DNA of 64,000 bases from Pseudolabrys sp. (GTDB taxonomy: Bacteria; Pseudomonadota; Alphaproteobacteria; Rhizobiales; Xanthobacteraceae): assembly GCA_009694265.1 (NCBI GenBank), contig SHVM01000002.1, positions 1 to 64,000 on the forward strand, written 5' to 3'. Each line of letters opens with the position of its first letter. Positions within the stretch are counted from its first letter, which is position 1. Position numbers and translations under genes: made by a program. Shown here piece after piece: positions 3,658 through 16,126 of the stretch. A model generated the notes under the pieces. The model ran no database searches. It worked only from the letters and a program-made list of their open reading frames with translations, and was not told where the DNA came from.

Positions 3658-4326
3658 TTAGGGGCGTCTATGAGCCTTAAGACCGCGAATGAGGAGGATA
3701 TTGCCCTCCGGGCTGGTCTTGCTGGGCACTTTCGAGCTCTCAAGTGTCCAATATTTAGCGGCTTCGGTCAATTCAGCGTCTACATCTTGACCCTTGGGGA
3801 AGATTCCGAGCGCTCCCCGCTCGATCAGTGGAAAGCTCTGATCGCAAAGGGTTTTCAACGGGGATAACGCGCGCGCCGTCACGACATCCACGTTGTCCCC
3901 GTAGCTGTCCCCAAAATTCTCCGCCCTAATCTGGTGGACCACCGCCGGAATCCGCGTCACGCGCACCGCCTCGCGCAAAAAATTGGCTTTTTTGCCTACG
4001 CTTTCAATCAGATGGACCAGAGCGCCGGGCTTATCCGCCAGCGCGCAAGCGATCGGAATGCCGGGAAATCCGGCGCCGGATCCGTAATCCGCCCAGACCA
4101 ACGCATCCGGCGCATGATCGATGAGCTGGAGCGAGTCGGAGATGTGGCGAGACCACAGCAGAGGAAGCGTTGATTCTGCCACGAGGTTGATCTTCTTCTG
4201 CCAAAGCAACAGCAGAGCAACGAAGATCTCGAGACGTTCTTGTGTTTCACATGAAACAGGTGTGAGCGAAAACGCACGTTTTTTATCGGCGTCGCGCTCG
4301 AAATCGCCCTGCCCGCGCTTGCTCAC
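3658..4326 (-). CDS. rsmG: 16S rRNA (guanine527-N7)-methyltransferase RsmG
   Basis: [18 protein letters not shown] motif, [10 protein letters not shown]; conserved synteny mnmG-rsmG-parA-parB. Confidence 0.93.
4243..4258. promoter_or_regulatory. Near-consensus parS-like site inside rsmG
   Basis: tgtttcacatgaaaca, one mismatch to TGTTTCACGTGAAACA. Confidence 0.6.
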
Positions 4327-6188: not shown

Positions 6189-6244
6189 TTGCGCCTTGTA
6201 GCGGAGGGCCGCTGGCGGGTCAAAAACATCCCGTTTTTGCGGAA

Positions 6245-6260
6245 TGTTTCACGTGAAACA
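6245..6260. promoter_or_regulatory. parS: parS centromere site (perfect palindrome)
   Basis: tgtttcacgtgaaaca is identical to the conserved bacterial parS consensus. It lies between mnmG and mnmE, about 3 kb from parAB. Confidence 0.93.
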
Positions 6261-6442
6261 CTGTCAAATAGGTATCAAATTACTGTTGATCTGCTTGTTC
6301 TTAGGCTCGAACTGCGCATCCTCGGGGCAGAATATCCGCTGCTCGTGGCCGAGCCAAATTACTCTTCTGGGTGCGCTTCGTGGCAGAACACTTGGTCCGA
6401 CCTCTTTGACGCCATTCGGCCAGCTATTTGCCCAAAAACTGG

Positions 6443-7918
6443 CTACTTGCCAATGCAGAAGTCACGGAAGATCACGTCCAGGATATCCTCGACATCCACA
6501 CGGCCGGTCAGCCGCCCGAGCGCGCGAGCGGCGATACGCAGCTCCTCTGCCAGCAAATCCTCATGCCCCGCTACTTCGCGCGCCAGCGCCCGGCGCAGGG
6601 CCGCCAGGACCTCCTCGAGCGCGTAGCGATGACGCACGCGGGTGACCAGCGAGGATTCGGCACCGGCCAGGAAAGCCTCGGCGTGACGGGCCAACCGATC
6701 CAACAGCAGGTCAAATCCCTCACCTGTTGTGGCCGATAAATTGAACTCCAAGTCATTATTATAGGATATAGATTCATTTTTATTGCTTAACGGAGCATTA
6801 ACCAAGCTTCTCAAGGGTTTATTAGATCGTAAAGGTAATTCACTCTTATTGATATTATGCTTTTGATGTTCATTCTTTGATCTAACCTGTTGAATCAGAT
6901 CAATTTTGTTACGGATTAGCCAGGTCGCCGGTGCCGACAGGCTTTGCTCCACCAGCACAGTGCGATCCGGCAGTCCGGGGCCGCTGGCCTCGCCCGCATC
7001 CACCACCCACAGCACGAGGTCGGCGCCGTCCGCTCGCTCACGTGCGCGGCGCACGCCTTCCAGCTCGACCGGGTCGTCCGTTTCGCGAATGCCGGCGGTA
7101 TCGAGCAGAGTCACCGGCAGGCCGCCGAGATCGAGATGCACCTCGATCACGTCGCGGGTGGTCCCGGCATAGGGCGAGACAATCGCCGCCTCACGCTTGG
7201 CGATCCGGTTGAGCAGCGTCGACTTGCCGGCATTGGGCGGGCCTGCAATCGCCACCACCAGGCCTTCGCGCAGCCGCTCGCCACGGCCGCCATCGGCCAG
7301 CGCGGCCGCGATCTCGTCCGCCAGTTCGCGCGCGATTGTCAGCGCCGGCTGAACTAGATTTTCCGGCACGTCGCCCTCGTCGGAAAAATCGATCCTCGCT
7401 TCGACCAGCGCCAGCGCCTGGATCAGCCTTTGTCGCCAGGTCTCCGCGCGGCCCCCAAGCAAGCCCTTCATCTGGCGGAACGCCTGCCGGCGCTGGCCTT
7501 GCGTCTCAGCAGCCACCAGGTCGGCGAGGCCTTCGACCGCGGTCAGATCGAGCTTGCCATTCTCGAAGGCGCGGCGGGTGAACTCGCCGGCCTCGGCCGG
7601 ACGCAGGCCCTCGATGCGCCCGAGCGCCGTTAGCACCGCGCCAATCACCGCGCGGCCGCCGTGCAGCTGCAGCTCGGCTGTGTCCTCGCCGGTCTCGCTG
7701 TGCGGCGCGGGAAACCACAGGATGAGCGCCTCGTCGATGATCTCGTTTGTTAGCGGGTCGCGAATGCGGGCCAGCGCAGCCTGGCGCGGCTCGGGACTTT
7801 TGCCGGTGAGAGCCTGCAACGCCGCGCCCGCGCGCGGGCCGGAAATGCGGATGACGGCAATGGCCGCTGGCGGGCGGCCGGAACTGAGGGCGAAGATCGT
7901 GGGGCGGGTGGGGGGCAT
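6443..7918 (-). CDS. mnmE: tRNA modification GTPase MnmE (TrmE), with an unusual insertion in the G domain
   Basis: GPPNAGKSTLLNRI (G1), GTTRDVIEV, DTAGIRETDDPVE, NKID (G4), C-terminal FCIGK. Confidence 0.96.
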   Translation of the reverse strand: MPPTRPTIFALSSGRPPAAIAVIRISGPRAGAALQALTGKSPEPRQAALARIRDPLTNEIIDEALILWFPAPHSETGEDTAELQLHGGRAVIGAVLTALGRIEGLRPAEAGEFTRRAFENGKLDLTAVEGLADLVAAETQGQRRQAFRQMKGLLGGRAETWRQRLIQALALVEARIDFSDEGDVPENLVQPALTIARELADEIAAALADGGRGERLREGLVVAIAGPPNAGKSTLLNRIAKREAAIVSPYAGTTRDVIEVHLDLGGLPVTLLDTAGIRETDDPVELEGVRRARERADGADLVLWVVDAGEASGPGLPDRTVLVEQSLSAPATWLIRNKIDLIQQVRSKNEHQKHNINKSELPLRSNKPLRSLVNAPLSNKNESISYNNDLEFNLSATTGEGFDLLLDRLARHAEAFLAGAESSLVTRVRHRYALEEVLAALRRALAREVAGHEDLLAEELRIAARALGRLTGRVDVEDILDVIFRDFCIGK

Positions 7919-14912: not shown

Positions 14913-15292
14913 GCTCTCAGCTTTCCGGACTTCTTTTCTAAAAACTCTAATTAGATTCTTTGTAGTGTTTATTAGGTCGTTGATTGGACTCATGACTTGC
15001 GATCGTGTTTCTGTCCACTGGATGGCAATCCCGGATTCAGATGTGGGCTTAAACCAGCATCTAATCGTTCACCGCGGAAAGCGTAGTTTTATGGGGCTTT
15101 TATAGCGTTATCCCCTACTGTCCCCAGAGCGCTGTCCACATCCCCACATCAAGACCTGATAGACGCCCGTAAGATTGTCCCGCGGGCCAGCCATGTGGAC
15201 GGAAATTGCACTCGCTCTCCGTGTTAGCTTGCGTGGCGGTTAAAGCCGTGGCCTGCTCCCTTGTATCCACAATCCATCCTGCAGCTATACAG
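14880..15292. other. Putative chromosomal replication origin (oriC)
   Basis: hemE/ppsR intergenic region, the position of Caulobacter and Rhizobiales origins. DnaA-box-like 9-mers: TTATCCCCA 14903-14911, TTATCCCCT 15108-15116, CTGTCCACA 15132-15140, GTATCCACA 15263-15271. AT-rich stretch about 14930-14985; divergent flanking genes. Confidence 0.75.
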
Positions 15293-16126
15293 ATGTCGAA
15301 CACCGGTTATTTTCATCTCCATCTGGTTTCCGACGCCACCGGCGAGACCCTGATTATGGTCGCGCGTGCTGCTGCGGCGCAATACGCCAATGTGTCTCCG
15401 GTCGAGCATCTCTACCCGATGGTGCGCTCGAAGAAGCAACTCGATCACGCGCTGGCCGAAATTACCGAGGCGCCCGGCCTCGTGCTTTATACCTTGCTTG
15501 AAGAAGACCTGATTCAACTGTTGGAAGATAAATGCCGCGAGCTCGGCCTGCCCTGCATGTCGGTGCTGGGTCCGGTGCTGCGGCTGTTTCAGTCTTATCT
15601 CGGCGCCGAGACCATCCACCGCGTCGGCGCCCAGCACGTGCTCAATGCGGAATATTTCCAGCGCATCGACGCGCTCAACTACACGATGTTTCATGACGAC
15701 GGCCAGCATATCGAAGGGCTGGAGGAGGCCGATGTGGTGCTGATCGGCGTCTCGCGCACATCGAAAACGCCGACTTCGATCTATCTCGCCAATCGCGGCG
15801 TCAAAACGGGCAACGTGCCGCTGGTGCCGGGCGTGCCGCTGGCGCCGCAAGTCGAGGCGCTGACGCGGCCGCTGGTGATCGGGCTTTATGCGAGCCCCGA
15901 GCGCATCGTGCAAATCCGCGAGAACCGGCTGCTCGGCCTCAATGCCCATCGCGACGACGATCAATATATCGACAAGACCGCGGTCGCCGAGGAGGTGGCT
16001 TATTCGCGGAGGCTTTGCGCCAAACATAACTGGCCGAGCATCGACGTGACGCGGCGCTCGATCGAGGAAACCGCCGCCGGCGTCATGAAGCTGTTGACCG
16101 AGCGCCGCCGCGCGCCGGGGAAATAG
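15293..16126 (+). CDS. Pyruvate, phosphate dikinase regulatory protein (PPSR/DUF299)
   Basis: [51 protein letters not shown]-like [10 protein letters not shown]. Start at MSNTGYF. Confidence 0.93.

What the first reader, a model, noticed from the sequence alone, without database searches (positions are those of the whole stretch)
6743..6892. AT-rich insertion of about 50 codons inside the MnmE G domain
Between the G4 motif (NKID) and the G5-like motif (SATTGEG) the protein reads QQVRSKNEHQKHNINKSELPLRSNKPLRSLVNAPLSNKNESISYNNDLEFNL. The DNA here is conspicuously AT-rich in an otherwise GC-rich gene, and the segment is Asn/Ser/Lys-rich and low complexity. MnmE G domains normally have only a short spacer here. 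The frame stays open, so this looks like an in-frame insertion tolerated in a surface loop of an important tRNA-modification GTPase.
Basis: partly seen in the sequence, partly recalled or inferred. Interest (0 to 1): 0.65.

Follow-up and report, generated by a model that had tools for sequence, protein, structure and literature searches.

The report
Centromere-side DNA signals inside mnmE
In soil bacteria of the genus Pseudolabrys, a floppy, AT-rich stretch of the tRNA-modification enzyme MnmE appears to be shaped by DNA signals for cell-cycle regulators (CtrA, and in some species DnaA) next to the chromosome's centromere, so the protein seems to carry the extra residues because the DNA is needed.

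Summary
In detail: the G4-G5 spacer of MnmE is 54 codons at 30% GC in a gene otherwise at 68%. It is neither a recent insertion nor a dispersed element. Nearly all sampled species of the genus (Pseudolabrys) carry an open segment there, mostly 29-132 codons. It is AT-rich at synonymous sites too (GC3 about 0.3 against 0.8). Of 344 ORFs in 464 kb, only mnmE has such an interior island.

Nucleotides are conserved beyond the amino acids. TTAA-N7-TTAA, the CtrA box, occurs 19 times in 14 of 33 species against 3.3 expected under synonymous shuffling, and ARTGAAYC 41 against 12.6. The window's box (6787-6801) is its only one in 64 kb. A composite of both motifs occurs in 300 family genomes only here, in 8 species. 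Species without the box sometimes carry perfect DnaA boxes; one relative has two, 11 bp apart, read in different frames. The segment lies 305-545 bp from a parS centromere site in 31 of 32 species, and a parS lies inside it in the other. It is not the replication origin (GC skew).

Best reading: a parS-linked cis-acting DNA platform for CtrA/DnaA, tolerated as a disordered MnmE loop. DNA-level selection is well supported; binding and function are inferred.

The parts
6443..7918 (-). mnmE (trmE), tRNA-modification GTPase, 491 aa, intact, ends in the conserved FCIGK
6737..6898 (-). HV2: AT-rich G4-G5 spacer (54 codons, GC 0.30, GC3 0.31), the segment in question
6787..6801 (.). TTAA-N7-TTAA (CtrA-box consensus); on the + strand TTAACGGAGCATTAACCAAG (6787-6806). 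The only exact match in the 64-kb window and one of 17 in the genome
6811..6825 (.). degenerate second box CTAATAAACCCTTGA (two mismatches), 24 bp from the first; exact TTAA-N7-TTAA in relatives L003, L018, L028
6773..6778 (-). ARTGAA motif (AATGAATC), 8 bp from the CtrA box; with the box it forms the composite found only in mnmE
6839..6844 (-). ARTGAA motif (AGTGAA)
6869..6874 (-). ARTGAA motif (AATGAAC)
6923..6997 (-). HV1: second hypervariable but GC-rich segment between G3 and G4 (25 codons, GC 0.75), internal control for HV2
6245..6260 (.). perfect parS (TGTTTCACGTGAAACA) in the mnmE-mnmG intergenic region, 485 bp from HV2
4243..4258 (.). second parS (1 mismatch) near the rsmG-mnmG junction
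14950..15330 (.). hemE-PPSR intergenic region with several DnaA-like sites; the position where GC skew turns in three relatives, so the likely oriC

Best explanation
The AT-rich segment of mnmE is a cis-acting DNA platform of the centromere region that happens to be translated. In most Pseudolabrys lineages, including this one, it carries one to three exact or near-exact CtrA boxes (TTAA-N7-TTAA, often extended towards TTAACCAT on the antisense strand) and several copies of an unassigned box, AARTGAAYC. In some lineages it carries DnaA boxes instead, and in one a parS site. It lies 0.3-0.5 kb from the parS site between mnmE and mnmG, upstream of mnmG-rsmG-parA-parB. Proposed mechanism (inferred): the cell-cycle regulators CtrA and/or DnaA bind here and couple the cell-cycle state to ParB-parS partitioning or to expression of the par operon, much as DnaA acts at parS in Caulobacter. 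Because the DNA must be read through, it encodes a disordered loop (peptides such as MVNxxLT and K[N/S]E are read-through of the boxes) at the place of the Ras-like alpha-4 region, where MnmE can bear it. Shown: genus-wide presence, AT bias at synonymous sites, nucleotide-level motif conservation, parS proximity, and a CtrA gene. Inferred: that CtrA and DnaA bind, and the consequence of binding.
For: GC3 is about 0.3 in HV2 against 0.8 in the core across synonymous families, while the equally variable HV1 of the same gene is GC-rich. TTAA-N7-TTAA: 19 sites in 14 of 33 species against 3.3 (maximum 9 of 1000) under synonymous shuffling, none at N5, N6, N8 or N10, and 0 in 31 kb of core mnmE; about 6 elsewhere in 1.26 Mb, where N7 also outnumbers other spacings. 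In the module Leu is TTA in 17 of 17 and Val GTT in 12 of 14, while neighbouring Pro uses four codons. The first TTAA is encoded as VN, VK, FN, LK and, in G021, IN. Ser in the [NS]E motif is AGT in 36/47 against 39/221 elsewhere (p 1e-14); Arg before it is AGR in 21/21 against 44/118. The composite CtrA box + ARTGAAY occurs 9 times in 300 family genomes, all in mnmE of this genus, and the reversed control 0 times. Four species left out of the statistics (G019, G021, G334, G035) all carry the exact box. Five of six distinct perfect DnaA boxes in about 1.07 Mb of loci lie in HV2, including two 11 bp apart in different frames. parS is 305-545 bp away in 31 of 32 species and inside HV2 in G007. 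The own genome encodes CtrA (96% identity) and GapR. Precedent: DnaA binds DnaA boxes at the Caulobacter parS and promotes segregation (PMC6399470, PMC6667618, PMC9945499); the CtrA consensus in Hyphomonas is TTAA-N7-TTAAC (PMC7200025).
Against: No binding data. ARTGAAYC has no known reader. About half of the genus species have no exact CtrA box: a 7-species subclade has lost it and become GC-rich, and L023, L020 and others are degenerate. In Hyphomonas 211 of 222 CtrA sites are intergenic (PMC7200025). The synonymous-shuffle null does not model shared descent; the internal controls reduce this worry but do not remove it. With one mismatch allowed the excess is weaker (48 sites against 21, maximum 36). 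No sigma-70-like promoter was found near the box, so a transcriptional role is not evident. GANTC sites are not enriched.
Confidence: 0.6

Rival explanations
1. Purely protein-level: a disordered Asn/Ser/Lys/Glu-rich surface loop that expands and contracts by tandem duplication of a 22-residue (66-nt) unit, with no DNA function; AT-richness is a relic of an AT-rich seed sequence.
For: Lengths cluster near 32, 54 and 76 residues (steps of 22); recognisable tandem copies in L018; low pLDDT; short AT-rich NE-containing spacers in relatives could be the seed (L084, L085, L096).
Against: Conservation sits in bases, not residues: AGT not TCN, AGR not CGN, TTA in 17 of 17, and one DNA site encoded by different residues and frames. 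HV1 in the same gene stays GC-rich.
Confidence: 0.2
2. A messenger-level device: the segment is dense in codons read by the tRNAs that MnmE itself modifies (TTA, AGA, AAA, GAA, CAA), so its translation senses MnmE activity and tunes mnmE expression.
For: HV2 has 12 such codons per 40, level with the densest window of 344 ORFs.
Against: The fixed codons include GTT, AAT and AGT, which MnmE does not serve, and the first TTAA straddles a codon boundary. Serine AGY rises about as much as the MnmE codons. Another ORF reaches the same density.
Confidence: 0.06
3. HV2 is an internal or antisense CtrA-controlled promoter, for example driving mnmG-rsmG-parA-parB, rather than a centromere element.
For: CtrA boxes usually sit in promoters (PMC7200025); HV2 lies upstream of the par operon, and its box is the only exact one in the window.
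Against: No promoter-like site in 6190-7200; the -10-like TATAAT in the window is not conserved in relatives (by eye). Several HV2 versions carry DnaA boxes or parS instead of CtrA boxes.
Confidence: 0.12
4. A mobile or Rickettsia-palindromic-element-like insertion tolerated in frame.
For: In-frame, AT-rich, low-complexity.
Against: Single copy in the genome by BLAST, and by profile in the own and 22 other genus genomes; no palindromic RNA fold (z 0.08); no match in phages or plasmids.
Confidence: 0.02

Closest known systems
DnaA boxes at the Caulobacter crescentus parS centromere (Mera et al. 2014, as cited in PMC6399470, PMC6667618, PMC9945499)
   Same: Replication-regulator boxes beside parS; DnaA boxes in some relatives
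   Different: Here the sites are embedded in the mnmE coding sequence, shape the protein, and in most species are CtrA-type rather than DnaA-type; no binding shown
CtrA boxes in the Caulobacter origin Cori (five CtrA sites, PMC6399470)
   Same: Clustered TTAA-N7-TTAA near the origin and parS
   Different: HV2 is not the origin: GC skew turns at or near hemE/PPSR, 9-48 kb away in three genomes
Rickettsia palindromic elements in protein-coding genes (named in PMC10969869, found; details from my own knowledge)
   Same: In-frame low-complexity insert in a housekeeping gene
   Different: Not dispersed, not palindromic, single locus, conserved position across a genus
Other MnmE proteins (PDB 9hip, 3geh, 1xzp)
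   Same: Same fold, motifs and C-terminal catalytic motif
   Different: About 35 extra residues between G4 and G5

Membership tests
MnmE (TrmE) GTPase | TrmE_N, helical and G domains, C-terminal C[IV]GK | tested here: met
CtrA binding site | TTAA-N7-TTAA(C) sequence | tested here: met
   Exact match at 6787-6801; enriched over synonymous shuffles
CtrA binding site | CtrA regulator present in the genome | tested here: met
   96% identical ortholog, G000:C37:1385-1987
CtrA binding site | Occupied by CtrA in vivo or in vitro | not testable with these tools
   Needs ChIP-seq or a mobility-shift assay
CtrA binding site | Conserved in every member of the genus | tested here: not met
   Exact box in 14 of 33, plus 4 left-out species; a 7-species subclade lacks it
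Chromosomal replication origin (oriC) | GC-skew minimum at the locus | tested here: not met
   Minimum at or near hemE/PPSR in G004, G012, G020
Centromere (parS) region element | Constant proximity to parS | tested here: met
   305-545 bp in 31 of 32 species; inside HV2 in G007
Centromere (parS) region element | Effect on segregation | not testable with these tools
   Needs imaging of ParB foci after recoding HV2
Dispersed/palindromic coding insertion element | Several copies in the genome | tested here: not met
Dispersed/palindromic coding insertion element | Palindromic fold | tested here: not met
   Fold z-score 0.08

The most novel reading that the evidence does not exclude
A bacterial centromere-control site lives inside the coding sequence of a conserved tRNA-modification GTPase. 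The site switches between CtrA-type and DnaA-type boxes between lineages, and the protein's disordered loop is a by-product of that DNA code. It would be a 'duon' in bacteria that ties the replication/cell-cycle state to chromosome segregation.
Probability: 0.35. Interest if true: 0.88.

Novelty: new variant of a known kind. Interest (0 to 1): 0.74.

Why it matters
Protein-coding sequence is usually read as selected for its protein. Here a housekeeping enzyme seems to have acquired a loop whose residues are dictated by DNA-binding sites for cell-cycle regulators beside the centromere. If true, it gives a natural, lineage-rich experiment on how CtrA and DnaA act at parS (a role known mainly from Caulobacter), shows that cis-regulatory chromosome elements can colonise conserved genes, and explains why an otherwise conserved GTPase domain varies so wildly in one genus. 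It is directly testable by ChIP and by synonymous recoding.

Tried and rejected
Mobile or dispersed element: no second copy by BLAST or profile, none in phages or plasmids. RNA structure or Rfam family: fold z 0.08, no family. Replication origin inside mnmE: GC skew turns at or near hemE/PPSR in three genomes. GANTC methylation cluster: 44 sites against 39 expected. MnmE-dependent codon sensor: not specific. Sigma-70 promoter: none. A large regulon for the palindrome RTGAAY-N4-RTTCAY: 0-4 sites per genus genome. A flanking 24-nt direct repeat (75%), which could have been a target-site duplication, was not followed up in relatives.

Full report
OBSERVATION. mnmE (6443-7918, minus strand) is an intact 491-codon gene. 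Between G4 (NKID) and G5 (SATTGEG) lie 54 codons with 30% GC against 68% in the rest. Aligned with E. coli MnmE (PDB 9hip), about 35 residues are extra, between the E. coli positions of 'GETLGMSEV' and 'ALIRLSARTGEG'. AlphaFold gives pLDDT 39-49 over residues 349-388, followed by a short strand before G5, so the segment is probably a disordered loop in the alpha-4/beta-6 region of the Ras-like fold. That placement rests on general knowledge of the fold, and the model as a whole is of moderate quality (mean pLDDT 74.8, pTM 0.46).

RELATIVES. The genome belongs to a genus whose named members are mostly Pseudolabrys (Xanthobacteraceae). Nearly all sampled species of the genus have an extended open spacer, mostly 29-132 codons; G001 and G017 have only about 15, and G003 about 208. 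Nitrobacteraceae and Pseudorhodoplanes have 9-22 GC-rich codons, with few exceptions. Common lengths of 32, 54 and 76 residues point to a 22-residue (66-nt) unit. The profile of the unit matches only mnmE at significant E-values in the own genome and 22 other genus genomes, so it is not a dispersed element.

WHY AT-RICH? In the 33 distinct HV2 sequences GC3 is around 0.3 in most, against 0.8 in the core, and every synonymous family is shifted. The neighbouring hypervariable segment HV1 (between G3 and G4) is as free in sequence but GC-rich, so relaxed selection or local mutation bias does not explain HV2. Of 344 ORFs in 464 kb, only mnmE (in both species examined) has an interior 120-nt stretch below 42% GC.

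NUCLEOTIDE-LEVEL SELECTION. Within the recurring [NS]E motif, serine is AGT in 36 of 47 cases against 39 of 221 elsewhere in HV2 (p 1e-14), asparagine AAT in 55 of 58 against 85 of 128, glutamate GAA in 93 of 105 against 64 of 108; arginine one codon upstream is AGR in 21 of 21 against 44 of 118. The preserved string is therefore AARTGAAYC, and the peptide K[N/S]E[S/P] is its read-through. In the 17 aligned NKPLxxMVNxxLxxKSE modules the second leucine is TTA 17 of 17, valine GTT 12 of 14, and the codon after that leucine starts with A in 13 of 17, while proline in the same module uses four codons and asparagine both. The preserved string is GTTAAYNNNNNGTTAA, that is TTAA-N7-TTAA. Synonymous shuffling that keeps every amino acid predicts 3.3 such sites; 19 are seen in 14 species, none at neighbouring spacings 5, 6, 8 or 10, and none in 31 kb of core mnmE. 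The same DNA site is encoded as VN, VK, FN, LK and IN peptides. Caveat: this null ignores shared ancestry. The free synonymous positions interleaved with the fixed ones are the better control, and four species omitted from the statistics all carry the exact box (G019, G021, G334; and G035, where an N run breaks the ORF).

WHAT THE BOXES ARE. TTAA-N7-TTAA(C) is the consensus of CtrA, the alphaproteobacterial cell-cycle regulator (PMC7200025). The genome encodes a CtrA 96% identical to the query used (that query was written from memory). In 1.26 Mb of four Pseudolabrys the N7 spacing outnumbers others (8, of which two are HV2 sites, against 0, 2, 0, 3 for N5, N6, N8, N9). Several of the 17 genomic sites carry the extended half-site TTAACCAT (L171, L174, L179). 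In the window the box (6787-6801) is the only one in 64 kb. The composite TTAA-N7-TTAA-N8-ARTGAAY occurs nine times in 300 family genomes, always in mnmE of this genus; the reversed pattern never. HV2s of G005, G022 and G004 hold a perfect DnaA box instead of a CtrA box; a relative outside the main clade (L096) has two, 11 bp apart, read once as VDK and once as LWI. Only one further perfect DnaA box exists in about 1.07 Mb of held loci. G007 has a parS-like palindrome (CGTTTCACGTGAAACA) in frame within HV2.

WHERE IT SITS. The window is the origin-centromere region: parB, parA, rsmG, mnmG, parS, mnmE, rho, hemE. HV2 lies 305-545 bp from parS in 31 of 32 species. It is not the origin: the cumulative GC skew turns at or near hemE/PPSR in G004, G012 and G020, with mnmE about 20, 48 and 9 kb away. 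So HV2 travels with parS, not with oriC.

INTERPRETATION. In Caulobacter, DnaA binds DnaA boxes at parS and promotes centromere movement, CtrA controls the origin, and GapR peaks near parS and the origin (PMC6399470, PMC6667618, PMC9945499). The most economical reading is that Pseudolabrys keeps a parS-side platform for these regulators inside mnmE, and that MnmE tolerates the resulting loop. GapR, which prefers AT-rich DNA (own knowledge), is present too. Steps shown: presence, composition, motif conservation beyond the protein, proximity to parS, presence of CtrA and GapR. Steps inferred: binding, and the effect on segregation or par expression.

EVOLUTION. On a tree of the MnmE core the CtrA-box module marks a clade of 27 sequences (support 100/95). 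More basal lineages have ARTGAA motifs, as a rule without CtrA boxes (L036 has one). One subclade of seven (100/100) has lost the exact boxes, grown to 81-129 codons and acquired GCTGCGCAGC palindromes (6 sites against 0.03 under pooled synonymous shuffling). The loop therefore turns over its boxes, as regulatory DNA does.

Noticed in passing
HV1 of mnmE, e.g. L014, L027, L028: The G3-G4 segment contains in-frame 'VIPGREPSGERARNPE..GFRAR.FGAPRNDGD', which resembles translated GC-rich intergenic repeats common in alphaproteobacteria (from memory).
   Followed up: no
L025, L026, L030, L031 and other members of the 7-species subclade, HV2: Palindromes TGCTGCGCAGCA / TGTGCGCAGC recur in HV2 of this subclade where the CtrA boxes are lost (GCTGCGCAGC 6 against 0.03 expected).
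   Followed up: partly
L037 (G003): mnmE lies in a 977-codon open frame with a 208-codon G4-G5 spacer, mostly GC-rich and ending in an AT-rich KNE-containing piece.
   Followed up: no
L011 (G007), minus strand about 1103: A parS-like palindrome (15 of 16) lies inside the mnmE coding sequence, read as FVSRET, in addition to a parS further downstream.
   Followed up: partly
window 14950-15330: hemE-PPSR intergenic region with several degenerate DnaA boxes but no CtrA box: likely oriC, unlike the CtrA-box-bearing Caulobacter origin.
   Followed up: partly
L096, mnmE codons 353-360: Two perfect DnaA boxes 11 bp apart inside the spacer, encoded in different reading frames.
   Followed up: yes
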